Source: an uncultured Pelagibacteraceae bacterium
GTDB lineage: Bacteria; Pseudomonadota; Alphaproteobacteria; Pelagibacterales; Pelagibacteraceae
Direction: 5' to 3'
DNA: 64,000 nt
NCBI GenBank assembly: GCA_902527215.1
Contig: CABZOF010000001.1
Span: 499,498-563,497, forward strand
A program made the translations under genes and the position numbers. This document shows positions 2-50,464 of the stretch, in pieces; positions within the stretch are counted from its first letter, which is position 1, and the number at the start of each line of letters is the position of its first letter. Below the pieces are notes generated by a model, which saw only the letters and a program-made list of their open reading frames with translations, did no database searches and was not told where the DNA came from.

Positions 2-1033
2 ATTGACAGCACTCATATTCCAAGCTTTAGAAACTATATATCTATTACAAAAATAGATACGAAAAATAAAATTTTTAAAAAATTGGAAAGTATAGATCAA
101 GAAAATCTAAACTACGAAAATAAAATATTAATATTTAATGCTTTAAGCAAAGGATATTTTGATTTAAATAATATAGACCTTGCATTTCATTATTTAGAAA
201 AATCAAATTTGGTCAAAAAAGAAAAATCAGTATTCTCTATACACCAACAGGAAATAGAGTTTAATAAAATTAAATTTCTGTTTTCTAATATTGACAATAC
301 AAAAATAGAATTTACCAATAAGTTAAAAAGTCAACCGATTTTTATTGTTGGAATGCCAAGGTCTGGTACTTCACTTATTGAACAAATTTTATCTTCACAC
401 TCAAATATATATGGAGCAGGTGAACTTAATTTTTTACAAAAGGCAATTGAAAAATTAAATATTTATAACTCATATAATAGTAAAAATTTTACTGAGTTAA
501 GGTATTTTTACTATGAACAATTAAGAAAGATTTCTCAAAACTATATGATAATTGATAAATTGCCCATAAATTTTAAATGGATAGGATTTATAGCTAAGTC
601 TTTTCCCGAGGCAAAAATAATTCATATTGAGAGAAATCCAATGGCAGTTTGTTGGTCTAATTACAAAACCCTTTTTGTAGACAAAGGTATGGATTTTAAT
701 TTATCACAAGTAGATGTAGCAAAATATTACAAGTTATATTTAGATTTAATGACTTTTTGGAAAAGCAAATTTGGTGAAAATATTCTAAATATTAATTACG
801 AAAATTTTGTTCAAGACTTTGAAAGAAGTACAAAAACAGTACTAAATTATTTAGGTCTAAAATGGGAGAAGCAAATGAAATATTATGCAAAGACAGAAAG
901 AGTAGTAACTACAGCATCATATCATCAAGTTAGAGAAAAAATTAAAAAAAATACTTCTGATGAGTGGAAAAAATATGACCATTACCTTAAAAAAATGCAA
1001 GAAACTCTTGTCAGTCTGAAAATCAAATTTTAA
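2..1033 (+). CDS. TPR-type sulfotransferase family protein, 5' end truncated by window start
   Basis: The frame is open from base 2 with no stop before 83; the ORF track starts at an internal TTG. P-loop-like PAPS-binding motif FIVGMPRSGTSLIEQIL and downstream IHIERNPMAVCWSNY. Confidence 0.85.
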   Translation: MDSTHIPSFRNYISITKIDTKNKIFKKLESIDQENLNYENKILIFNALSKGYFDLNNIDLAFHYLEKSNLVKKEKSVFSIHQQEIEFNKIKFLFSNIDNTKIEFTNKLKSQPIFIVGMPRSGTSLIEQILSSHSNIYGAGELNFLQKAIEKLNIYNSYNSKNFTELRYFYYEQLRKISQNYMIIDKLPINFKWIGFIAKSFPEAKIIHIERNPMAVCWSNYKTLFVDKGMDFNLSQVDVAKYYKLYLDLMTFWKSKFGENILNINYENFVQDFERSTKTVLNYLGLKWEKQMKYYAKTERVVTTASYHQVREKIKKNTSDEWKKYDHYLKKMQETLVSLKIKF

Positions 1034-1110: not shown

Positions 1111-1156
1111 AACAAGCGGGCATAGCTCAGTGGTAGAGCGTCTCGTTGCCAACGAG
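1111..1156 (+). repeat. Partial copy of tRNA-Gly (5' flank, acceptor, D arm and anticodon arm), perfect 46-bp match to 2758-2803
   Basis: aacaagcgggcatagctcagtggtagagcgtctcgttgccaacgag occurs at both places; after 1156 the T arm is lost or degenerate (gtagtccttggttttttatcc). Confidence 0.9.
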
Positions 1157-1209
1157 GTAGTCCTTGGTTTTTTATCCTTGCTAATCTTAGTCTTTCTCAA
1201 CGTCTAGTT

Positions 1210-1232
1210 AATCTCGACACACTCACGACACA
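1210..1232 (+). repeat. 23-bp direct repeat, left copy
   Basis: aatctcgacacactcacgacaca, identical to 2665-2687; contains CGACAC iterations at 1215, 1226 and 1236. Confidence 0.9.
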
Positions 1233-1349
1233 CTTCGACACAGAAAAGAAAAACTATGGTGAGTGGAATAAAATATAATTGTAATTAAACTGTTACAAAT
1301 TTTTCATCTTGTTTTGATATCTTTCCATAAAAACAAAAAGGAATATATA

Positions 1350-2600
1350 ATGATAAAATTTATCTTAGCAGGCCTTCTGGCCTCAACCGCATTTGTTAGC
1401 ACAGTAAATGCAGACTTTAAAGAAATTGGGAAATTTGGAACACCAGCAAATAACCCTAGTGCAGAAGAAACATCAGCAGAAATAATTGCGGCAACAGCAG
1501 ATGGCATGAAACTGGTATATAGCGATAGCCCTGCAAACGCATTAGGCATGATTGATATTACTGATCCAGCAAATCCGAAACCATTAGGCCACATGAATTT
1601 AGGTGGTGAACCAACTAGTGTTGCAATCAAAAATGGACAAGCATTTGTAGGTATTAATACTTCTCCAAACTATGTAGAGCCAAGTGGTCACTTATTAGTT
1701 GTTGATCTTGCCTCAGGAAAAGAAGTTACAAAAGTAGAACTAGGTGGACAGCCAGACTCGGTTGCAGTTAGTCCAGATGGAACTTTTGTGGCAGTAGCTA
1801 TTGAAAATGAACGTAACGAAGATATCAACGATGAAAAAATTCCACAACTTCCAGGGGGTTTTGTGGCAATTATTAATTTAGCAGATAACAGTGTTACTAA
1901 AGCGGACTTAGTTGGTTTTTCAACTATTGCTCCTAACGATCCAGAGCCTGAGTTTGTTGATATCAATAATTTAGGTGAAATAGTTGTTACTATGCAAGAG
2001 AATAACTGGATGGCGGTTATTGATCGAAGTGGAAAAGTAATTTCAGAGTTTGATGCAGGACTAGTAACATTAGTAGGTATTGATAACAAAAAAGATGGTG
2101 AACTAAAGATGGTTGATACCATTGAGAATGTTCGTAGAGAACCAGACGCAGTTAAGTGGATTGACGATGATCATTTTGCAACTGCAAATGAAGGTGACTA
2201 TAAACATGAAGCACCAGGTCAAGCGAAACGTGGTGGTAGTCGTGGATGGACAATCTTCAATAAAAATGGTTCGGTGGTATACGAGTCAGGTTCGTCATAT
2301 GAAAGAGCACTCGCTTCAGCAGGTTACTGGCCAGAAAAACGTGCAGAGAAAAAAGGTGTAGAACCAGAGTCAGTTGAAGTAGCAATATATGGTGATACAC
2401 GTTATATCTTTGTTGGTGCTGAAAGAGCAAATGCTATCGGCGTTTATAAAGCAAACGATTTGAAAAACCCAGAATTAGTTGCTATTTTACCAACGGGTAT
2501 TGGACCAGAAGGTTTGGTTGCTATTCCACAACGGAACTTATTTATAAGTGCTAATGAAGTTGACAAAGAAAAATCAGTTACAATTTATAGCTTAGATTAA
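1350..2600 (+). CDS. Secreted beta-propeller protein, choice-of-anchor I / PhoX-esterase-like
   Basis: ATG at 1350 preceded by an aaaagga Shine-Dalgarno-like stretch and followed by a signal peptide (MIKFILAGLLASTAFVSTVNA); repeats such as VVDLASGKEVTKVELGGQPDSVAVSPDG. The track start at 1314 is probably too early. Confidence 0.75.
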   Translation: MIKFILAGLLASTAFVSTVNADFKEIGKFGTPANNPSAEETSAEIIAATADGMKLVYSDSPANALGMIDITDPANPKPLGHMNLGGEPTSVAIKNGQAFVGINTSPNYVEPSGHLLVVDLASGKEVTKVELGGQPDSVAVSPDGTFVAVAIENERNEDINDEKIPQLPGGFVAIINLADNSVTKADLVGFSTIAPNDPEPEFVDINNLGEIVVTMQENNWMAVIDRSGKVISEFDAGLVTLVGIDNKKDGELKMVDTIENVRREPDAVKWIDDDHFATANEGDYKHEAPGQAKRGGSRGWTIFNKNGSVVYESGSSYERALASAGYWPEKRAEKKGVEPESVEVAIYGDTRYIFVGAERANAIGVYKANDLKNPELVAILPTGIGPEGLVAIPQRNLFISANEVDKEKSVTIYSLD

Positions 2601-2617
2601 TAACTAAATTAAGCCTG

Positions 2618-2635
2618 TGGGGGCGTTAGCCCCCA
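2618..2635 (+). terminator. Hairpin TGGGGGC-GTTA-GCCCCCA downstream of the propeller gene
   Basis: Perfect 7-bp inverted repeat with 4-nt loop, 18 bp after the stop codon; no clear U-tract, so terminator function is uncertain. Confidence 0.5.
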
Positions 2636-2664
2636 ACATAAACTTTCATGTAAAGTTTTAAAAA

Positions 2665-2687
2665 AATCTCGACACACTCACGACACA
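2665..2687 (+). repeat. 23-bp direct repeat, right copy
   Basis: aatctcgacacactcacgacaca, identical to 1210-1232. Confidence 0.9.
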
Positions 2688-2720
2688 GTTGGTGATAAAT
2701 TTTACTAATTTAACTAATAC

Positions 2721-2749
2721 TTGCATTTCTAAAAACCGCTATCTATAAT
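2721..2749 (+). promoter_or_regulatory. Sigma70-like promoter for tRNA-Gly
   Basis: TTGCAT (2721-2726), 17-bp spacer, TATAAT (2744-2749), 13 bp before the tRNA 5' end. Confidence 0.7.
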
Positions 2750-2762
2750 GATTTTTTAACAA

Positions 2763-2837
2763 GCGGGCATAGCTCAGTGGTAGAGCGTCTCGTTGCCAAC
2801 GAGAAGGTCGTGGGTTCGAGTCCCATTGCCCGCTCCA
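2763..2837 (+). tRNA. tRNA-Gly (anticodon GCC), encoded CCA
   Basis: GCGGGCA acceptor pairs with TGCCCGC; anticodon arm CTCGT-TGCCAAC-GAG, GGTTCGAGTCC T loop, terminal TCCA. Confidence 0.95.
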
Positions 2838-2843
2838 AAAATT

Positions 2844-3689
2844 ATGATTATTTGGATCGCCTCTTATCCTAAAAGTGGAAACACATATTTAAGATCTTTC
2901 ATTTCTTCATATTATTTTTCAAAAAAAGGAAAATTTGATTTTGACTTGCTTTTGAATATTCTTCAATTTCCATCAATAAAATTTTCAAAAAAAAAAATTT
3001 ATTCAGAGCTAGAAGCAAGTCAAAGCTGGATTTATAATCAGCAACAGTTTTTTTCTGGTGAAAAAATACATTTTGTAAAAACACATAGTAGCCTTGATGA
3101 ATATAAAGGAAATAGTTTTACTACAGAAAATTTATCACTAGGCGGAATTTATATAGTAAGAGATCCTAGAAATTTAATAACATCTATGACACATCATTAC
3201 TCTCTTAATTATGATCAAGCATATTTTAAGATGTTAAATGAAAATCAAACTATTCTGGAAAAATCTACAGATGGTGATTATAGTAATTTTACATTTTTGG
3301 GATCATGGTCGAGTCATTATAAGTCTTGGAAAAATACAAATAATTTTAAAATTTTATTTATAAAGTATGAGGATTTAGAGAATAATAAACTTGATACCTT
3401 TAAAAAAATAGTAAATTTTATAAATACTTTAAAAAAAGATAAGCAATTAATTAATGAAAAAAAACTTATTAATTCAATTAATTCTACTAATTTTACTAAT
3501 CTAAAAAATAAAGAGGAAAATGAAGGTTTTGAAGAAAGTGTATTTACTAAATCTGGAGAAAGAAAGCGCTTTTTTAATTTAGGATTTAATAATAGATGGC
3601 AAAAAATTTTACCAAAAAATATTCTAAGCAAACTAAATAATACTTTGCAAAATGAATTAAATGAATTAGGCTATAAGTTTAATGAATGA
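2844..3689 (+). CDS. Sulfotransferase domain protein
   Basis: MIIWIASYPKSGNTYLRSF and GGIYIVRDPRNLITSM motifs. The track start (2793) lies inside the tRNA; the true start is probably ATG 2844. Confidence 0.85.
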   Translation: MIIWIASYPKSGNTYLRSFISSYYFSKKGKFDFDLLLNILQFPSIKFSKKKIYSELEASQSWIYNQQQFFSGEKIHFVKTHSSLDEYKGNSFTTENLSLGGIYIVRDPRNLITSMTHHYSLNYDQAYFKMLNENQTILEKSTDGDYSNFTFLGSWSSHYKSWKNTNNFKILFIKYEDLENNKLDTFKKIVNFINTLKKDKQLINEKKLINSINSTNFTNLKNKEENEGFEESVFTKSGERKRFFNLGFNNRWQKILPKNILSKLNNTLQNELNELGYKFNE

Positions 3690-4023: not shown

Positions 4024-5568
4024 TTAATGTTTGAAGTGCCTAGTTTTTGAAAAAACTAGAATAACACCTAATTTATCTGCAAATTTAATAATTTCTTTAT
4101 CTCGTATAGAGCCGGATGGTTGGATAATTGCACTTACTCCATTTTGTACCAAGATTTCTATTCCATCTACGAAAGGAAAAAAAGCGTCTGATGCTCCTAT
4201 GATTATGTCTTCATCATTAATCTTCTGAAATTTTTTCATTTTATCTATTGCTATTTTGCAACTATCTAATCTACTTGATTGACCTGATCCAATTCCAATA
4301 GTTGAACTATTCTTTGTTAAAACGATTGCATTAGATTTTACATTTCTACATACATTGAATGCGAAAAGTAGATCATCGAAAATCTTTTTTGTTGGCTTTA
4401 TTTTAGATACAACTTTAAAATTATCTTTACTAAAAATCTTGTTATCTGCATTTTGCAGTAATAAAGAGTCAAAGTTACTTATTATATTGCTTAAAATATC
4501 CACTTTTAATTTTGATGCATCAATCAATCTCAAATTTTTTTTTTTTTTTAAAATTTTAATTGATTCTTTGTCAAAACCGAGTCCAATGATTACTTCTAAA
4601 AATGTCTTACCTAATTCTAAGGCTATTTTTTTATTCACTTTAAAATTACATGAAACAATCCCCCCGAATGCACTTATTGGATCACATGCTATAGCTTCTC
4701 TATAACTTTCTATTTTACTCTTATTTACTGACACACCACAAGGGTTAGCATGCTTGACAATAACTGTACCAGTATTTTTTGGGAGTGATTGTGATATATT
4801 TAATGCTGCGTAAATATCATTATAATTATTATAGCTTAATTTTTTTCCACTCAATTGTAATATACCAAAATTATTATATTTACTATAAATTGCTGATTGT
4901 TGATGAGGGTTTTCACCATATCGTAATACTTCGATTAAATTTCCATGAATAGTTTTCTTTTGAGGAAAATGAACATTATTTTTTATATTCAAATATTCTG
5001 AAATAACAGAGTCATAGTATGCTGTTAAATTAAAAGCTTCTTGTGATAGTTTTTTTCTGAACTCTAAACTCGTAGCACCTTTATTTTTTTCTAAATCCAA
5101 AATGAATTCTCTGTATTGACTTGGAGCTGTTAGAACAGTTGTATGTTTATAATTTTTAGCTGCTGCCCTAACAAGAGCTGGACCTCCAATATCTATGTTT
5201 TCAACAAGTTTATTGTGGTTTTTTGTAGTTTTTAATGTTTTTTCAAATGGATAAAAATTAACAATAACTAAATCTATTTCTTTATAATTATTCTTTTTAA
5301 GTTCTTTTTTATGCTTCTTGCTTTCTCTTTTGCTTAAGATTCCTGCATACAACTTTGGATGAAGTGTTTTAACTCTACCATCTAAAATTTCGTCAGTACT
5401 TGTATATTCTGATATTTCTTTACATTTGTAGCCCAATTTTTTAATTTCTTTAGATGTACCTCCCGAACTTATAATATTAACTCTATATTTTTTTAGTGTT
5501 TTTAAAATTAATTTAATTTCTGATTTGTCTGATAGAGATATTATTGCTTTTTGAATTTTATTACTCAT
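4024..5568 (-). CDS. purH: Bifunctional AICAR formyltransferase / IMP cyclohydrolase
   Basis: ISLSDKSEI..SSGGTSKEI..DGRVKTLHPKLYAGIL; NPHQQSAIY; VKHANPCGV; SDAFFPF. Confidence 0.95.
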   Translation of the reverse strand: MSNKIQKAIISLSDKSEIKLILKTLKKYRVNIISSGGTSKEIKKLGYKCKEISEYTSTDEILDGRVKTLHPKLYAGILSKRESKKHKKELKKNNYKEIDLVIVNFYPFEKTLKTTKNHNKLVENIDIGGPALVRAAAKNYKHTTVLTAPSQYREFILDLEKNKGATSLEFRKKLSQEAFNLTAYYDSVISEYLNIKNNVHFPQKKTIHGNLIEVLRYGENPHQQSAIYSKYNNFGILQLSGKKLSYNNYNDIYAALNISQSLPKNTGTVIVKHANPCGVSVNKSKIESYREAIACDPISAFGGIVSCNFKVNKKIALELGKTFLEVIIGLGFDKESIKILKKKKNLRLIDASKLKVDILSNIISNFDSLLLQNADNKIFSKDNFKVVSKIKPTKKIFDDLLFAFNVCRNVKSNAIVLTKNSSTIGIGSGQSSRLDSCKIAIDKMKKFQKINDEDIIIGASDAFFPFVDGIEILVQNGVSAIIQPSGSIRDKEIIKFADKLGVILVFSKTRHFKH

Positions 5569-7193
5569 ATCCTACTAATTTGCCACTCAATTAATTGTTC
5601 GTTATTTTGAGTAATACCTGAGATAAAAATATTCTGATTCTCAATATAACTATTTTTATTACCAAAATATAGCCCAGTTTCAACCCCTATCAATCCATCA
5701 TTTGAAAAGAATCTCCACCCAGAATTATCTAGTTCAATTAACACAGATTTATTATCTTGAAGTTTTGTTACTTTAATATTTGGTAACAGATGAAACCTTA
5801 TTTCAAAGTTTGTAACCTTAAAATTCTTTTTTTTAATAAGTTTGTCTTTTCCAAAAAGAATACTTTTATCATTGTCAAATTCCAAATTCCTTTGATGAAT
5901 TACTCCATATCTTGATAAATATCCATCATGTGAACATTTAATACTCCAGTAATCTTTTTCATATGTTACTTCATTATCAAACGTTTTAAATCCTTTGCTC
6001 ACTATACTAGGACCTTTACTATTTTTTTTGAAATTACAAGTTGAAGAGTTATCTAAAATTAATGTCGAATGCGTTGCAGTTGATTTTGAAATCGAATTTA
6101 GTTGATGGTTATAATTTTGAAAATAGCCAGAGTTTGTAATTAGTTTTTTTCCCTTAAAAAAAAATTCAAATGATAATGGTCCACTTTGATAATTTTCAGA
6201 GTAATTTTTTACAGGATTAATTCCTGTATCCATAGCAAGAATTACATTTTTATTTTTTAATATTGTATAGCCAGATATATTAAATTTATCACTCTTAAAC
6301 TTGTACCTAAAGAGAGATAGATATTTATCAAAGTCTTTATTGTTTGAATTATTATTTCCGTTAAATAATAAACTTTGCTTTAATGACCCCCAAATAAAAT
6401 CATAAGATTTGCCTAGATAATGAATTATTTCATTTAAGTATTCTGGAATATCATTTAAAGAATCTTTTAAAAGTTCTCTGATTAAGATGAAATATTTTAA
6501 ATAAAAAACCATCTGCCTTATATTTCTTGATTTTGGAAAGTAGTTGCTATCAAAAGAAGTATTAATAATTTTTTTAAGTAAATCTAATCCATATTCTAAA
6601 AATCTATTGTTTTTGTAGGCTATTCCTGCGATAGTTATCGCTGTACACCCGATCATTTTGTCGTTTAATTCAGAGGATCTATCAATTTCATTCATTAAAT
6701 GATTTACTTGCTTACTGATTATTTCGTTAAAACTATTTTTATAGTTATTCCCAGATTTATTATAGGTTATTTTAGAATTAGATATCCAAGCTATTACCCT
6801 TTTAGAAAGAATATCTGTTTCCCAACTTTTTGTTTCATAGTTTTGGTTCTTTTTAATCCAATTTTCAATAATTGACTGCGTAACCTCGTTAGAAGATTTA
6901 AGATCTATTGAAAACAACCAATAAAAACTATGAAGTTTTTTAAAATCATTATATTTTAAACCTTTATTTTCCCATATTGATTGAACATTAAAATCTTCAA
7001 TCTTTTTTTTTTGTTTTTCATATTTTATTAATGAACTAAGTATATTAAGACTTGGTTGATAAACTAAAACATTTTCATCAACTTTTGAAATTTTTCTATT
7101 ATAAATAGATGAGTTTAAATAAACTTTTCGTATTTGGTTTTTAAAAATAAAATAAAATTCATTAATATAATTAAAAGAACTTTTTAAAAACAT
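5565..7193 (-). CDS. Heparinase II/III family protein
   Basis: C-terminal heparinase-like region (SGPLSFEFFFKGKKLITNSGYF, STATHSTLILDNSSTCNF). Confidence 0.75.
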   Translation of the reverse strand: MFLKSSFNYINEFYFIFKNQIRKVYLNSSIYNRKISKVDENVLVYQPSLNILSSLIKYEKQKKKIEDFNVQSIWENKGLKYNDFKKLHSFYWLFSIDLKSSNEVTQSIIENWIKKNQNYETKSWETDILSKRVIAWISNSKITYNKSGNNYKNSFNEIISKQVNHLMNEIDRSSELNDKMIGCTAITIAGIAYKNNRFLEYGLDLLKKIINTSFDSNYFPKSRNIRQMVFYLKYFILIRELLKDSLNDIPEYLNEIIHYLGKSYDFIWGSLKQSLLFNGNNNSNNKDFDKYLSLFRYKFKSDKFNISGYTILKNKNVILAMDTGINPVKNYSENYQSGPLSFEFFFKGKKLITNSGYFQNYNHQLNSISKSTATHSTLILDNSSTCNFKKNSKGPSIVSKGFKTFDNEVTYEKDYWSIKCSHDGYLSRYGVIHQRNLEFDNDKSILFGKDKLIKKKNFKVTNFEIRFHLLPNIKVTKLQDNKSVLIELDNSGWRFFSNDGLIGVETGLYFGNKNSYIENQNIFISGITQNNEQLIEWQISRI

Positions 7194-7194
7194 T

Positions 7195-7854
7195 TTACAT
7201 TGATTTTAGTTTTTCAATATTAGTTTTGATATTCCCACCGTTCTCTTTAAAAACTGTGGTTCCAGATACTAAAATATCAGCTCCAGCTTCTAAAACTATT
7301 TTTGAATTACTAAAATTAATTCCTCCATCAACTTCAATATCAAAGTGATATTGACTTTTATCCTTTATTTTTTTCAATTCTTTTATTTTATCTAATACTT
7401 CAGGCATAAATTTTTGCCCACCAAAACCAGGGTTTACACTCATAACAAGAATTAAATCAATGTTGTCAATTTCATCAATTAAAGTTTTTATTTCAGTTTT
7501 TGGATTTAAAGATACACCAACTTTTTTGCCAAATTTTTTTATTAAACTTATAGATTCTCCCAAGTTTTCAGTAGCTTCAGGGTGAATAGTTATTATATCT
7601 GCACCAGCATTTGCATAATTTTCAATATATTTGTGTACTGGAGAAATCATTAAGTGTACATCAAATGGAAGCTTGGTATATTTTCTTAGGTTTTTTATTA
7701 CTGGAGGTCCTATTGTTAAATTTGGAACAAAGTGACCATCCATTACATCGACGTGAATTAAGTCGGCCCCACCTTGTTCTAGCTTCTTAATTTCATTGCC
7801 AAGCTGGCTGAAGTCTGCAGATAATATAGAAGGAGAAATTTGAATTTTTTTCAT
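7195..7854 (-). CDS. rpe: Ribulose-phosphate 3-epimerase
   Basis: ISPSILSADFSQLG, HVDVMDGHFVPNLTIGP, VMSVNPGFGGQKF, EVDGGI. Confidence 0.96.
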   Translation of the reverse strand: MKKIQISPSILSADFSQLGNEIKKLEQGGADLIHVDVMDGHFVPNLTIGPPVIKNLRKYTKLPFDVHLMISPVHKYIENYANAGADIITIHPEATENLGESISLIKKFGKKVGVSLNPKTEIKTLIDEIDNIDLILVMSVNPGFGGQKFMPEVLDKIKELKKIKDKSQYHFDIEVDGGINFSNSKIVLEAGADILVSGTTVFKENGGNIKTNIEKLKSM

Positions 7855-7879
7855 TTGATACTAAAAATATTAGTATCAA
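7855..7879 (-). promoter_or_regulatory. Hairpin directly abutting the rpe start codon
   Basis: Perfect 10-bp inverted repeat TTGATACTAA-N5-TTAGTATCAA, immediately next to the rpe ATG (complement of 7852-7854). Confidence 0.5.
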
Positions 7880-7897
7880 TTTTTTCTTCTATTTGAA

Positions 7898-8248
7898 TTA
7901 GTTTTTACTAAATATTCTATATATTTCTCGAGCAATTTCACTTTCAAGAGGGAATGAAAGCATACCCATAACTGAATAACCAAGTAAATAAGGCATTAAA
8001 TAGAAACGGCCCATATAAAAGAACCATGCTACGTAAAGTGGTACTAAAGGTCCTATAATAAAGCTTGGGGTAATTGGTTTAAATATTTTAATAAGTGGGT
8101 TAGTTAATTTAACAAATACTTTCATAAAGAAAAATTGTGAATCTTCTTTCTGAAATATATTCATCGCAACTCTTCCAATTAGAGTCCACATTATAACTCC
8201 AAGGACATAATCAATTATATAAACTAAGGGATGAAAGTTTGCTGACAT
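7898..8248 (-). CDS. Small membrane protein, possibly YggT-like
   Basis: 116 aa with several hydrophobic segments; clean ORF followed by rpe. Confidence 0.55.
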   Translation of the reverse strand: MSANFHPLVYIIDYVLGVIMWTLIGRVAMNIFQKEDSQFFFMKVFVKLTNPLIKIFKPITPSFIIGPLVPLYVAWFFYMGRFYLMPYLLGYSVMGMLSFPLESEIAREIYRIFSKN

Positions 8249-8261
8249 TTTTGATCTTATC

Positions 8262-8284
8262 TAGGGGCGAAAATTTCGCCCCTA
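8262..8284. terminator. GC-rich perfect hairpin between symporter gene and small membrane protein gene
   Basis: taggggcgaaaatttcgccccta inverted repeat; U-tract weak in both directions. Confidence 0.5.
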
Positions 8285-8300
8285 AAATAATATATTTTAA

Positions 8301-10115
8301 TTAATGTTGTTTTCCAAGTATGGTTTTACCACTTGGTACACGCACATCATCAACCATTTTCTGAGTAGCTGCGTCTGGTGCTGCAGTTATTAAACTGACA
8401 ACAATCATAGAAACTAAACTTACAGCTGCTCCAACTATTCCAAAAGTAAGTTGAGTTATGCCTAAGAACCCAGATCCACCACTTCGTACCCAAATTAGGT
8501 ATGCAGTTCCTGAGATCAGTCCTAATAGCATTCCTGCAACAGCTCCTGGTGCGTTAGCTCTCTTCCACCATACACCAAGTACAAGTGGGAAGAATAGTCC
8601 AGACATCGCAAAGTCAAAAGCCCAAATGACCGAACCTAGAATACCTTGTATCTCTAGTGCAGCAATTGTAGCTCCTGCAAAACCAATCAATACAAGTAAT
8701 ACCCTTGCAACAATTAATCTTTTTGCAGTTTCAGCTTTTGGATTAATGATTTTATAGTAAACATCATGTGATAACGCATTTGAAATAGCTAAAACTAATC
8801 CATCTGCAGTTGACATGGCAGCAGCCATACCTCCAGCAGCAACTAGTCCAGATATTACATAAGGTAATCCAGCAATCTCAGGTGTTGCTAATACAACAGC
8901 ACTACCTTTCATGAAGAACTCATTAAGTTCAAGAGTTCCATTGCCGTTAAAGTCACTTACAAACATCAACTTCGCTTGGTTCCAGTTTTGATACCAGTCA
9001 AGAGCTTGAACTTCAGTTATTGATTTACCAATAATTCCAGTAGCCAAGTTAGGATCCATCAATGAAATTTTTGATAGAGTAGCTAACATTGGAGCAGAAG
9101 AATAAAGTAGGAATATAAAGAATAATGACCAACCTACTGATCTTCTAGCTGTTCTTACACTTGGAGTAGTAAAGTATCTCATCATAACGTGAGGTAATGA
9201 TGCTGTTCCTGCCATCATACAAACTGCTAATGATATAAATGCCCAAGGTGTTGCATTAACCGATGAGTGTGCTTTTGTAATTGCAGATAACCCTTTTGGA
9301 ACTGTAGCTAAATCTGCAGCTGAGTTTTTAACAAATCCAAATTGACCTTCAAGTTCTGCAATTCTTGCTACTTCGTCGGCTAACATGAAGTGTGGGAAGA
9401 AACCTGCACCAATATTGTTACTTATCCAGAATACTGGAAGCAAATAAGCAATAATCAGTACAATGTATTGAGCAACTTGTGTCCAAGTTACTGCTCTCAT
9501 TCCACCAAGCATTGAGCACATTAGAATACTAGCTAGTCCAACGTAAACTGCAATTTCAAATGGAATATCTAAAGCAACAGAAGCAATAGTTCCTGTAGCG
9601 TTAATTTGAGCAGTCACGTAAGTGAATGATGCAACAGTTAAGACTACAACTGCACTAAATCTTGCTAAGTTACCACCGTACCGAGTTCCTATAAAATCTG
9701 GAACAGTATAACATCCAAATTTTCTAAGATATGGTGCTAATAAAGAAGCAACTAGTACATATCCACCAGTCCATCCAACAAGCAGTGCCATATAACCATA
9801 GCCTTTAAAGTAAATACCACCTGCCATGGCTACAAATGATGCACCAGACATCCAGTCTGCTGCAGTTGCCATTCCATTAAATACAGTAGGCACTTGCCTT
9901 CCAGCTACGTAATAAGCATCTGTTTGAAGTGTTCTAGATAACCAACCAATTAAAGCATAAATCAAAACTGTAAATGATACAAAAAAGATACCAATCATTT
10001 TTGCTGTCATTCCAGCTTGTTCAGCTATTGCCATTATGATGATAAATACTAGAAAACCTCCAGTATATATCCCATAGACTTTAGGTAAGTTATCTATAAA
10101 TTTACCTTTTATCAT
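8301..10115 (-). CDS. Sodium:solute symporter (VC_2705/ActP-like subfamily)
   Basis: ATAADWMSGASFVAMAG, GGMAAAMSTADGLVLAISNALSHDVYYK; co-directional with a DUF4212 partner gene. Confidence 0.88.
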   Translation of the reverse strand: MIKGKFIDNLPKVYGIYTGGFLVFIIIMAIAEQAGMTAKMIGIFFVSFTVLIYALIGWLSRTLQTDAYYVAGRQVPTVFNGMATAADWMSGASFVAMAGGIYFKGYGYMALLVGWTGGYVLVASLLAPYLRKFGCYTVPDFIGTRYGGNLARFSAVVVLTVASFTYVTAQINATGTIASVALDIPFEIAVYVGLASILMCSMLGGMRAVTWTQVAQYIVLIIAYLLPVFWISNNIGAGFFPHFMLADEVARIAELEGQFGFVKNSAADLATVPKGLSAITKAHSSVNATPWAFISLAVCMMAGTASLPHVMMRYFTTPSVRTARRSVGWSLFFIFLLYSSAPMLATLSKISLMDPNLATGIIGKSITEVQALDWYQNWNQAKLMFVSDFNGNGTLELNEFFMKGSAVVLATPEIAGLPYVISGLVAAGGMAAAMSTADGLVLAISNALSHDVYYKIINPKAETAKRLIVARVLLVLIGFAGATIAALEIQGILGSVIWAFDFAMSGLFFPLVLGVWWKRANAPGAVAGMLLGLISGTAYLIWVRSGGSGFLGITQLTFGIVGAAVSLVSMIVVSLITAAPDAATQKMVDDVRVPSGKTILGKQH

Positions 10116-10378
10116 TGATCACCCTCTCTTTCAGTAAATCCGAATTCATCATCTATTTTCTCTTGTCGACCGGCAAACCAAAAAATTAGAATGACGAAGA
10201 TTGCAAGCGATCCCTGACATGTAAACCAATACGTTAAAGGATATCCAAATGGTCTAATGCTTGACTCTTGCATCTCGGCTCCGAAAAGAAAGATGCCAAT
10301 TGAGAAAACAAACCAAATTGCTAATGTGATAAAGAGCAAATTCCTGGTTTTTTCCCAGTGTTGTTCTTGTTTTGACAT
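10112..10378 (-). CDS. DUF4212 small subunit/partner of the symporter
   Basis: WEKTRNLLFITLAIWFVFSIGIFLF...FGYPLTYWFTCQGSLAIFVILIFWFA; 4-bp overlap with the symporter gene. Confidence 0.85.
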   Translation of the reverse strand: MSKQEQHWEKTRNLLFITLAIWFVFSIGIFLFGAEMQESSIRPFGYPLTYWFTCQGSLAIFVILIFWFAGRQEKIDDEFGFTEREGDQ

Positions 10379-10498
10379 TTTTTCTCTCTCCTATAGGTTA
10401 AAGAAAGAACCATACCGATAATCAAATTTATTTAAACCCCTAAAAACGCTCGATATTGTGTCATTTTTACATTATATATCAACATATTAAGTAGATAA

Positions 10499-11125
10499 AT
10501 GGCCCTTAAATACAGATTCAACTTAAAAGATATAAAACTTGAAGATTTCAAAGTTTATTTAGTTGCAATGTTCAAAAGCATTTTGCCAAAGAAAAAAATA
10601 AAAAATGTTGACGATTTAAAAGAATTTATTCAGCAAAAATCAGCATGGGTATCACAAGTTACTTTATATAATTATTTAAAAACAAGAATGGGCACTAAAT
10701 GGGTCCTCCATTTTGATGATGAAAAGTTTTTAAAATCAATTAACACTGCCAAATGGAACATATATGCAATTTCACTTCAAGATTTATCTTTTTATACTAT
10801 TTCATATCTAAATGTTTTTTATAGTTTCCGAGAAACTAATAAAGCTTTCGAAATTTATAATAATATTTTGGACAAAGAATTAGAGAATGGCATGCCTAAG
10901 GAAATTGTTGATGAAGCGAGGGCTAGTTTTCAGAAAAGATTAGATCAAATTAAATGGGATGACTATTATAAGTCTTGGCCATTCAATGAAAGTGCTCTTG
11001 CATTATATAATTGGGCCCCAGTAGCTACTGAACTAAAATCTATAGATAGAAAGATAGTCCTTAATTCTATGATTTTGAAATGGGATAATATTAAGGAGGA
11101 GTTTTCTAAACTAATAAAGATCTAG
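10499..11125 (+). CDS. Conserved hypothetical protein
   Basis: 208-aa ORF filling an intergenic space, convergent 4-bp overlap with acs. Confidence 0.6.
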
Positions 11126-13107
11126 ATATTTTTTCTATTATCTACCAAACTTTCAACAACCGAAGGGTCAGCCAAAGTAGTTGTATCTCCTAATTGACCA
11201 TGTTCATTGGCAGCAATTTTTCTTAGAATTCTTCTCATAATTTTGCCTGATCTTGTTTTTGGTAGTCCTGGAGCAAATTGAATTAGGTCCGGAGTTGCTA
11301 TTGGACCAATTTGTTTCCTAACCCAAAGTTTTAAATCTCTCTCTAAATCAAGAGTACTTTTCTCTCCAGCATTTAAAGTTACATAACAGTACAACCCGTT
11401 TCCTTTTATATCATGTGGGTAACCAACCACTGCTGCTTCAGCCACTTTTGGATGAGCTACAAACGCACTTTCAATTTCAGCAGTACCTAAATTATGGCCA
11501 GAAACAATAATTACATCATCTACTCTTCCTGTAATCCAATAATAACCGTCTTTATCTCTTCTACAACCATCACCCGTAAAATATTTTCCGTCAAATTGTG
11601 AAAAATAAGTGTCTATAAATCTTTGATGGTCACCATACACACTTCTCATTTGTCCAGGCCATGATTGTGAAATACAAAGTCTACCTTGTGCTTCTCCTTT
11701 TAAAACCTTGCCATCTTTATCTAGGATTTCTGGTTTAATTCCATAAAATGGTTTTGTCGCAGAACCAGGTTTTAAATCAATCGCTCCAGTTTGAGGACTG
11801 ATCAAAATTCCACCAGTTTCTGTTTGCCACCAAGTATCAACGATCGGGCATCTACTATCACCAACAGTTTTGTAATACCATTCCCAAGCTTCAGGGTTAA
11901 TTGGTTCACCAACAGTGCCTAAAAGTTTTAAAGTTTTTCTTGATGTTTTTTTTACAGGTTTATCACCTTCTCTCATTAAAGCTCTGATTGCTGTTGGAGC
12001 TGTATAAAAAATATTAACTTTATATTTATCAACTATTTGCCACCACCTAGATGTATCAGGATAAGTAGGTATTCCTTCAAACATAATTGTAGTTGCACCG
12101 TTAGCAAGCGGACCATAAATAATATAACTGTGTCCTGTAACCCAACCTATATCAGCTGTGCACCAGTAAATATCTTTAGGTTTATAATTAAAAATATATT
12201 GGTGAGTCATTGATGCATAAACCATGTATCCACCGGTTGTATGTAGTACACCTTTTGGTTTCCCAGTTGAGCCAGATGTGTAAAGAATGAATAATGGATC
12301 TTCAGCATTCATTTCTTCAGGCTCACATTTTGCTGAAACTTTACTTGTCATTTTGTGATACCAAACATCACGATCATTGTACCAATCAATTTTTTTTGTA
12401 CTTGTTCTCTTTACAACGATACATTTCTTTACGTTGGGACAGCTTTGCAAAGCTTCATCTGTAATAGATTTTAAAGGGATTGTTTTGCCTCCTCTTACAC
12501 CCTCATCCGCAGTTATAACATAATCAGATTCGCAATCATTAATTCTACCTGAAATACTATCTGGTGAAAAACCTCCAAATATTATGGAGTGAACTGCACC
12601 TATTCTAGCACATGCAAGCATTGTGTAGGCAAGCTCTGGTATCATGGTAAGATAAATTGTTACTCTATCACCTTTTTGAACTCCTAGATTTTTTAATCCA
12701 TTTGCTGCTTTTGAAACCTCTTTATGAAGTTCTTTATATGTAATTTTTTTTTGAACTTTTGGATCGTCTCCTACCCATATAATTGCAGTCTTATTAGCAT
12801 TTTTTTTAAGATGCCTATCAATGCAATTCGCTGAGGCATTTAAAGTACCATCATAGAACCATTTGATATGGACATCATCTTTACTATACTTAACGTCTTT
12901 AATTTTTTTATAAGGCTTAATCCAATTAATTCTTTTTCCTTCTTTTTTCCAAAATCCATCGTTGTCTTTAATCGACTCGTTATATTTCTTTATATATTGA
13001 GATTTATTAACAGTAGCTTTACTTATCCATTCCTTCTTAGTTTTATAAATTGTCTCTTTAGGTTTTTTAGATATTATTTTTTTTTTAGTTTTTTTTTTCT
13101 TAGGCAT
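11122..13107 (-). CDS. acs: Acetyl-CoA synthetase
   Basis: [65 protein letters not shown]; Lys-rich N-terminal extension. Confidence 0.95.
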
Positions 13108-13117
13108 GAATTTTTTT

Positions 13118-13534
13118 TTAATTAATTCTACCCATCTTCAAAATTATTTTCCAGCTTTTAGTATCAATAGGCATAACAGATAGTCTACTTTGTCTAATAA
13201 GAGATAAGTTCTCTAAAGCCTTAGTTTTTTTGATGTTTTCAAGTGTTACAGGATTTTGGAGTTTACTTTTAAATCTAACTTTAACTGCAACAAACCTTTT
13301 TTTTTTATCAGTCAGATCGATGAATGCTGTTTTAATAACTTCGACAATACCAACTATTTCTTTTCCAATATTAGAATGATAAAAAAAACAAAGATCTCCT
13401 TTTTCCATTTTTTTTAAGTTATTTGCTGCTTGGTAATTTCTTACACCATCCCAGTCAGCTCCTTTTTCTCCAGCTTTGATTTGTTGATCAATTGACCATA
13501 CATCTGGCTCTGATTTCATTAACCAATATTGCAT
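13118..13534 (-). CDS. EVE domain-containing protein
   Basis: [17 protein letters not shown]...[31 protein letters not shown]. Confidence 0.9.
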
Positions 13535-13651
13535 TTAATTTTTTTTCTTTTTCTTTTCTTTTTTAAGTTTTCTTTTTTCCTTTAAAGAAAGTTTAGCTTG
13601 TTTCATTACGCTAGCATCCTTAAATGATTTACCACTATATCTTTTCGACAT
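13535..13651 (-). CDS. Small very basic protein (38 aa), missing from the ORF track
   Basis: Translates to MSKRYSGKSFKDASVMKQAKLSLKEKRKLKKEKKKKKN; its ATG (13651) directly abuts the tsaD stop (13652) and its stop (13535) directly abuts the EVE gene ATG (13534). Confidence 0.65.
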   Translation of the reverse strand: MSKRYSGKSFKDASVMKQAKLSLKEKRKLKKEKKKKKN

Positions 13652-14725
13652 TTATAATCTAACTCCCGCTCCTTTTAAAAACTTTGCTTTTTCGTCAAGT
13701 GGTAGTCTTGGACTTGCAGGAAGATCTAAATTATCAAATTTTTTGATTTTATACTTTTCAAGACCAACTAGTGCAATCATAGCTGCATTATCCCCACATA
13801 ATTTTGGTTCAGGGAAAATTGGTCTAAAATCATTCTTCTTACAAACTTTTATTAATTTTTTTCTGATACCCTTGTTGGCAGCAACACCTCCAGCGATTAC
13901 AAAAGTTTTATTTTTCTTTTTGTTTGTCTTTTTGAACTCATCAAATGCTATTTGTGTTTTTACTTCTAAAATTTCTTCAATTGTTTTTTGAAAAGACGCT
14001 GCAAGATCATACTTTTCTTGTTTAGATTTTATAGTACTTGATATCCTTAAAATCGCGGTTTTAAGACCTGCAAATGATAAATTACATCCCCCTTTATTAA
14101 TAATTGGTTTAGGAAGTTTAAATTTATTTGCACTTCCCAGCTTTGCAAAACTTTCTAACTTTGGTCCTCCTGGAAATTCAATACCTAAAAGCTTTGCAGT
14201 TTTGTCAAATGCTTCTCCTAAAGCATCATCAATTGTTGTTCCTAATCTTTTATATTTTCCAAGTCCATTCACACTAAGATATTGCGTATGTCCTCCCGAA
14301 ATTAATAATAATAAATATGGGAAATCTAAGCTTGTATTGAGTTTTGGACTTAACGCATGCCCTTCCAGATGGTTTACGCCAATAAAAGGTATATTTAGGC
14401 TTGCAGATAATGCTTTGCCAAAATTTAAACCAACAGTAAGGCAAACAATTAAGCCCGGGCCAGATGTTGAAGCAATTGCAGAAACATCTTTTAAATTCAC
14501 ACCACTTTCATTAATTGCTTTTTTCGCAATTAAATCAATTTTTTCAACATGAGATCGTGCTGCAAGCTCAGGAACTACACCTCCAAATTCTTTGTGAATA
14601 TTAAATTGACTTGAAACTACGTTAGATAATATTTTTATCTTACCGTTTTTATCTTCTTCTATGATTGATACTGCAGTTTCATCGCAACTTGTCTCAATTC
14701 CAAGGATTATTTTTTTTTCATTCAT
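13652..14725 (-). CDS. tsaD: tRNA N6-adenosine threonylcarbamoyltransferase
   Basis: ILGIETSCDETAVSI, GVNHLEGHALSP, LLLISGGHTQYL, VIAGGVAANKGIR. Confidence 0.96.
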   Translation of the reverse strand: MNEKKIILGIETSCDETAVSIIEEDKNGKIKILSNVVSSQFNIHKEFGGVVPELAARSHVEKIDLIAKKAINESGVNLKDVSAIASTSGPGLIVCLTVGLNFGKALSASLNIPFIGVNHLEGHALSPKLNTSLDFPYLLLLISGGHTQYLSVNGLGKYKRLGTTIDDALGEAFDKTAKLLGIEFPGGPKLESFAKLGSANKFKLPKPIINKGGCNLSFAGLKTAILRISSTIKSKQEKYDLAASFQKTIEEILEVKTQIAFDEFKKTNKKKNKTFVIAGGVAANKGIRKKLIKVCKKNDFRPIFPEPKLCGDNAAMIALVGLEKYKIKKFDNLDLPASPRLPLDEKAKFLKGAGVRL

Positions 14726-50366: not shown

Positions 50367-50443
50367 CCGCAAAATACAGCAATTTGCGGTGTCTTTGGTA
50401 ACAAAGAGATCGACACCAGTCAGCGAGAGTTCGCCCACTGGTG
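50367..50443 (+). ncRNA. Structured 5' leader upstream of ffh with several overlapping hairpins
   Basis: CCGCAAA/TTTGCGG (50367-50373 with 50383-50389); GGTGTC/GACACC (50388-50393 with 50412-50417) capped by TTTG-GTAA-CAAA; CACCAGT/ACTGGTG (50414-50420 with 50437-50443) capped by GCGA-GAGT-TCGC. Confidence 0.65.
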
Positions 50444-50464
50444 CGATACTTGCTGGATGTGATT

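What the first reader, a model, noticed from the sequence alone, without database searches (positions are those of the whole stretch)
1111..2837. Cassette inserted between a truncated tRNA-Gly copy and an intact tRNA-Gly
A perfect 46-bp block (5' flank through anticodon arm) occurs at 1111-1156 and 2758-2803, bracketing one gene of visibly higher GC than its surroundings. Known tRNA-integrating elements usually leave the intact tRNA beside the native promoter and a 3'-half remnant at the far end; here the remnant is the promoter-proximal 5' half, and the intact downstream tRNA has its own TTGCAT-N17-TATAAT promoter. No recombinase is present. Either an unusual integration into the 5' half of the tRNA that brings a replacement promoter, or a tandem tRNA duplication whose first copy decayed (sequence after 1156 still faintly resembles a T arm).
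Basis: partly seen in the sequence, partly recalled or inferred. Interest (0 to 1): 0.72.

Follow-up and report, generated by a model that had tools for sequence, protein, structure and literature searches.

The report
Hitchhiking gene cassette in SAR11 tRNA-Gly
A single gene, probably for scavenging phosphate, sits in a tRNA gene of an abundant ocean bacterium (SAR11) as one member of a moving pool of tiny cassettes that carry the DNA ends of phage-satellite-like elements but no recombinase of their own.

Summary
Window 1116-2803 is an integrated mobile cassette: it supplied a new promoter and the 5' half of tRNA-Gly(GCC), the host kept its own 3' half, and the old 5' half was left behind.

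Searching for them gave about 50 cassettes in Pelagibacteraceae with the same geometry and many different cargoes, in tRNA-Gly, tRNA-Thr (including a second one in this genome) and one protein gene.

Most genomes (184 of 197) have a single tRNA half, i.e. no detectable cassette. The window's cassette is 99.8-99.9% identical in eight other genomes whose nearby genes are only 70-86% identical, so it moved recently.

Integrase-bearing, satellite-like elements (6-8 kb) occupy the same tRNA half and have homologous ends. The cassettes therefore look like integrase-less passengers moved in trans. The integrase that reads CGACACA arms was not found, and excision was not shown.

The cargo resembles cyanophage "phoA" (55%). 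Class: new variant of a known kind.

The parts
1116..1156 (+).
1157..1214 (+). Element-borne left arm region, homologous to the left attP arm of integrase-bearing elements; source of the faint T-arm resemblance
   Evidence: 0 of 2000 shuffles reach the alignment score with L179, L210, L243 or L188
1215..1241 (+). Three left CGACAC repeats (1215, 1226, 1236), proposed arm-type integrase sites
1350..2600 (+). Cargo gene, 416 aa, choice-of-anchor-I beta-propeller, 55% identical to cyanophage S-SM1 phoA (annotated alkaline phosphatase)
2670..2686 (+). Two right CGACAC repeats (2670, 2681), proposed arm-type sites
2721..2749 (+). Element-borne promoter-like TTGCAT-N17-TATAAT for the rebuilt tRNA
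   Evidence: conserved at the right end of related cassettes; not flagged by the consensus scan
2763..2837 (+). Intact tRNA-Gly(GCC): about nt 1-41 supplied by the element, T arm and 3' end kept from the host (host-specific from nt 49 = 2811)

Best explanation
Window 1116-2803 is a non-autonomous integrative cassette. As a circle it would carry an attP site: right CGACAC arms, promoter, tRNA 5' half as core, left arm region, left CGACAC arms. A tyrosine integrase acting in trans recombines this attP with the 5' half of the host tRNA-Gly(GCC). The host's 5' half is left at the far end, and a working tRNA is rebuilt from the element's promoter and 5' half plus the host's 3' half. The integrase most likely comes from a phage-satellite-like element of the family found intact at the same tRNA half in other SAR11 genomes. 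Cassettes with the same type of ends carry many cargoes, also use tRNA-Thr (3' half) and one protein gene, and stack in arrays. Shown by sequence: anatomy, empty sites, cargo exchange, recent transfer between lineages, homology of the ends to integrase-bearing elements. Inferred: excision as a circle, action of an integrase in trans, and the carrier between cells.
For: Second repeat inside both ends. Same design at tRNA-Thr in the own genome. 13 of 296 family genomes have the arm motif, 2 the reversed control; about 50 cassettes with constant geometry and different cargo. Left and right arm motifs match within elements, p = 0.00045 by re-pairing ten elements. Single-copy, cassette-free sites in 184 of 197 genomes; 25 of 30 inspected loci show no arms and no second half. 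Cassette 99.8-99.9% identical where nearby genes are 70-86% identical. Breakpoints inside the tRNA. Integrase-bearing elements with the same remnant/intact arrangement at the same tRNA half: L210 (6.07 kb) and L243 (8.36 kb). Satellites L179 and L188 with the same left-arm layout directly before int. No integrase in any cassette catalogued.
Against: No integrase with CGACACA arms was found; only 4 of 44 cassette carriers hold an integrase of this family, with other arms where inspected. No circle or attP junction of the cassette was seen in the viral contigs scanned. The same CGACACA arms occur beside unrelated cores (Gly, Thr, protein gene), so one integrase may not serve all.
Confidence: 0.75

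Rival explanations
1. The cassettes once integrated with an integrase but now spread mainly by homologous recombination after DNA uptake, using the tRNA half or cassette ends as homology.
For: Hybrid ends exist: L211/L107 and L119 carry the window's cargo with a left arm of another type (CGGCCACA) and CGACACA on the right, as expected from recombination between cassettes.
Against: Near-identical cassettes sit between flanks that look unrelated, with only the tRNA shared. Paired arm motifs are kept at fixed positions, which homologous recombination would not require.
Confidence: 0.15
2. The chromosomal Xer-like tyrosine recombinase, the only one in most SAR11 genomes, moves the cassettes.
For: It is nearly universal and the only tyrosine recombinase found in closed carriers G035 and G043.
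Against: It lacks a recognised arm-binding domain in Pfam (only Phage_int_SAM_1), is not near such repeats, and the cassette ends match those of elements with their own different integrase.
Confidence: 0.06
3. Tandem duplication of the tRNA region, the first copy having decayed.
For: The left copy still scores 30.7 bits as a tRNA.
Against: Empty sites, different cargo at the same site, mobile identity pattern, left arm homologous to integrase-bearing elements.
Confidence: 0.01
4. The identical cassettes in many genomes are an artefact of contamination or chimeric assembly of single-cell or metagenome data.
For: Most carriers are single-amplified genomes or MAGs.
Against: Carriers come from several record series, the copies differ by 2-4 bases and in arm details, lie inside contigs with different host flanks, and the single-contig genome G043 carries a cassette with other cargo at the same tRNA.
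Confidence: 0.02

Closest known systems
tRNA-targeted gene cassettes of additive flexible genomic islands (Ca. Actinomarinales, PMC7771536; Methylophilaceae fGI-2, PMC10872708)
   Different: In those papers no paired arm repeats, no integrase-bearing relatives at the same site and no mover are described in the passages read; here the 5' half is used at tRNA-Gly and the promoter is replaced
Phage satellites, e.g. PICMI (PMC10803314), and VEIMEs and tycheposons as cited there and in PMC11389934
   Same: The ends are homologous to those of integrase-bearing satellite-like elements; L179 has int, a replication-type ATPase and a small terminase subunit
   Different: The cassettes lack integrase, replication and packaging genes; transfer in virions is not shown
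CALIN cassette arrays and MITEs (hitchers of integrons and transposons, PMC11389934)
   Same: No recombinase; ends that a helper's enzyme could recognise; arrays of cassettes
   Different: The ends look like phage-type attP with tRNA-half cores and arm repeats, not attC sites or transposon ends
Cyanophage phoA (S-SM1 SSM1_174) for the cargo
   Same: 55% identity over 393 aa; both on mobile DNA; in the phage it lies beside pstS
   Different: Phosphatase activity of this protein is untested; the PhoX-like Psip1 of PMC11098088 is a different family, and membership in its 'atypical PhoA' group was not tested

Membership tests
Element integrated in a tRNA gene (Campbell-type) | Regenerated intact target at one end and displaced target fragment at the other | tested here: met
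Element integrated in a tRNA gene (Campbell-type) | Empty sites in relatives | tested here: met
Element integrated in a tRNA gene (Campbell-type) | Encodes its own integrase | tested here: not met
   Only one ORF of size in the cassette, no recombinase
Phage satellite (PICI, PICMI, VEIME type) | Integrase plus replication gene | tested here: not met
   Met by L179 and L210 but not by the window cassette
Phage satellite (PICI, PICMI, VEIME type) | Packaged in helper phage particles | not testable with these tools
   L179 and L188 come from a viral contig collection, which is only suggestive; no such contig was found for the cassette
Tycheposon | tRNA at the border and tyrosine recombinase within (as used in PMC10872708) | tested here: not met
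   tRNA present, recombinase absent
Non-autonomous derivative (MITE-like relation to an autonomous element) | Ends homologous to those of an element that has the enzyme | tested here: met
   left arm only; the right end was not tested this way
Non-autonomous derivative (MITE-like relation to an autonomous element) | Mobilised in trans by that element's enzyme | not testable with these tools
   Needs a recombination assay
Integron cassette or CALIN | attC recombination sites | tested here: inconclusive
   No dedicated attC search was run; the repeats seen are a tRNA half and CGACAC arms
Additive flexible-island cassette | Cassette bounded by a direct repeat of part of a tRNA gene | tested here: met

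The most novel reading that the evidence does not exclude
SAR11 bacteria share a pool of recombinase-less, mostly one-to-few-gene cassettes whose ends mimic satellite attP sites. Integrases of passing satellites or phages insert and remove them at tRNA genes, giving a satellite-driven, integron-like cassette system in one of the ocean's most abundant bacterial groups.
Probability: 0.55. Interest if true: 0.85.

Novelty: new variant of a known kind. Interest (0 to 1): 0.75.

Why it matters
SAR11 genomes are streamlined and poor in known mobile elements (recall), so how they gain niche genes is an open question. Here a defined 1.6-kb unit with recognisable ends has moved recently between lineages. 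It carries a probable phosphate-scavenging gene; other units carry a phosphonate-type transporter or defence genes. A class of likely mover is in hand, so gene gain in SAR11 becomes testable with attP/attB assays and read-level searches for circles. The pattern of target half plus paired arm repeats is a handle for finding such cassettes elsewhere.

Tried and rejected
Tandem tRNA duplication with decay: rejected. A viral partner with the same arms: viral contig scans for the arm pattern gave contigs that looked unrelated or chance-like. Of the 92 genome-contig hits for the 17-mer, roughly 40 are in unrelated organisms and were set aside as chance. Searching viral contigs with the L183 integrase returned only itself. 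The whole cassette is absent from plasmid and phage records except for the cargo gene and tRNA stretches. Serine recombinase in the own genome: none. Consensus promoter scan: at shuffle level, uninformative. Papers of Williams 2002, Hackl 2023 and Eppley 2022 are not held, so statements on them rest on other papers or recall.

Full report
1. Observation. The 46-bp exact repeat (1111-1156, 2758-2803) is real and the only 46-mer repeat in the window. The right copy belongs to an intact tRNA-Gly(GCC) at 2763-2837; the left copy ends after the anticodon stem and does not fold as a tRNA. Only the 41 bp from 1116 on are the shared block proper. One gene lies between; its GC is high for the neighbourhood, but two other long ORFs in the window match it.

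2. A second direct repeat, AATCTCGACACACTCACGACACA, lies inside both ends. It consists of CGACAC units at 10-11-bp period, three on the left and two on the right. This is the layout of arm-type sites of a tyrosine integrase (recall of phage biology). The own genome has the same design again on another contig: tRNA-Thr(TGT) with a displaced 3' half, CGACAC repeats inside both ends and two small genes.

3. A family. CGACAC-N4/5-CGACAC occurs in 13 of 296 genomes of the family, against 2 with the reversed control pattern. A 17-mer form of it occurs in about 50 Pelagibacteraceae records. Cassettes sit at tRNA-Gly (5' half), tRNA-Thr (3' half) and at the 5' end of a 75-aa ORF without a Pfam match. 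The first repeat is 60 nt after the core in most Gly and Thr cassettes. At tRNA-Thr they form arrays. In 52 listed elements (two loci were entered twice under different ids: L107/L211 and L105/L246, judged from contig lengths) there are 68 cargo ORF clusters. Elements without CGACAC have other arm motifs at the same place (CGGCCACA, CGTCACA, GGGACGCA and others). Left and right motifs match within an element better than when re-paired: mean score 10.6 against 7.15 +/- 0.78, p = 0.00045, ten elements.

4. Mobility. In 217 genomes of at least 85% completeness, 197 have the Gly half; 13 have two copies, the rest one (counted from the listing; decayed remnants such as L036 are not counted). In 25 of 30 inspected loci there are no arms and no second half within the 3 kb held. 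For tRNA-Thr, 54 of 175 genomes have two to four copies (counted by hand). The window's cassette differs by 2-4 bases over about 1610 nt from those in eight other genomes (L034/L124, which are one record, and L059, L070, L072, L087, L094, L121, L129), while the nearby PCD-like and purH-like genes (names by recall) are 70-86% identical and many 300-nt flanks look unrelated. Identity stops 0-5 nt before the tRNA on the left. On the right it runs through the tRNA or, in L034/L124, L089, L090 and L110, ends at nt 48 where the host's own T arm begins. So the element brings promoter and 5' half, and the host keeps the 3' half.

5. Integrase-bearing relatives. L210 (G456) holds a 6.07-kb element in the same tRNA-Gly with the same remnant/intact arrangement, an integrase directly after the left arms, and a 706-aa protein that by eye resembles the DUF5906 primase-like protein of L186. 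L243 (G406) is an 8.36-kb element with a related integrase and cargo of exported-looking proteins. L179 (5998 bp, 123-bp terminal repeat) and L188 (6170 bp, 99-bp terminal repeat) are viral-collection contigs with terminal repeats, as expected of circles or concatemers. L179 has int, an AAA_25 replication-type protein and a Terminase_2 small subunit, a satellite-like gene set. Their left arms align with that of the window cassette (0 of 2000 shuffles each). The integrases of L210, L243 and L188 are 61-67% identical with the tyrosine-recombinase motif residues kept (residues assigned by eye). In 399 Pelagibacter genomes, 18 carry this integrase family, at tRNA-Gly, other tRNAs and tmRNA. Only 4 of 44 cassette-carrying genomes do (these assemblies are incomplete), and none seen has CGACACA arms. 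Hence the model of mobilisation in trans, with the exact partner unknown.

6. Cargo. The window gene encodes a choice-of-anchor-I propeller, 55% identical over 393 aa to the cyanophage S-SM1 protein annotated alkaline phosphatase, which lies beside pstS. PMC11098088 treats the 'atypical PhoA' of marine cyanobacteria as a putative phosphatase; whether this protein belongs there was not tested. Other cargo: phosphonate-type binding protein with ABC transporter and methyltransferase (L071), a helicase-PLD protein matching Mokosh models with an Mrr-type nuclease (L061), Type IIG restriction-modification (L029), a Z1/helicase protein (L037), HNH and NucS-like nucleases (L136, L120), a trypsin-like protein (L067) and a sulfotransferase (L099).

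7. Known or new. tRNA-fragment-flanked cassettes are known as additive flexible islands (PMC7771536, PMC10872708), and marine satellites are known (PMC10803314, PMC11389934). I found no description of these SAR11 cassettes in the held library, which lacks most subscription papers, so prior description cannot be excluded. What appears new: 5'-half integration with promoter replacement, paired arm repeats of several types, integrase-less cassettes and integrase-bearing satellite-like elements at the same site, and very recent transfer between lineages.

Noticed in passing
L038, L039, L060, L096, L103 (oriented; e.g. L039 about 8000-9450): The same propeller gene (97.7-97.8% identical) sits at another, non-tRNA place behind a 385-aa gene, followed by a CGACAC pair that continues like the left arm; possibly a relic with right and left arms fused and the core lost.
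   Followed up: partly
L211/L107 and L119, left end: Hybrid left arm: two CGGCCACA repeats followed by a CGACACA repeat, on a cassette with the window's cargo; suggests recombination between cassettes of two arm types.
   Followed up: partly
Thr cassettes, e.g. L035, L074, L097, L136: Many otherwise different cargo proteins begin with nearly the same signal-peptide-like leader MKKLLGIVVLGLLLSG.
   Followed up: no
L029 (G038) 4910-14584: Array of repeats at the protein-gene target with a Type II methyltransferase and a Type IIG restriction enzyme between two copies.
   Followed up: partly
L278 (G738) and L243 (G406): Two integrase-bearing elements in different tRNAs (Met-like and Gly) share closely similar cargo proteins (MKKNDFKIG.KYLILYSPRISRYMWFRD...), so cargo also moves between integrase-bearing elements.
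   Followed up: no
SAR11 genomes, e.g. G000:C3:19305-19796: Most SAR11 genomes have a single Xer-like tyrosine recombinase of 305-319 aa that scores below the XerC and XerD equivalog cut-offs.
   Followed up: partly
window 83-1033 and 2844-3689: Sulfotransferase genes flank the cassette on both sides, and sulfotransferases recur around or inside elements at this tRNA in other genomes (e.g. L033, L099, L245).
   Followed up: no
window 50399-50451: Rfam match to the ffh sRNA motif (RF01793, 58.7 bits).
   Followed up: no
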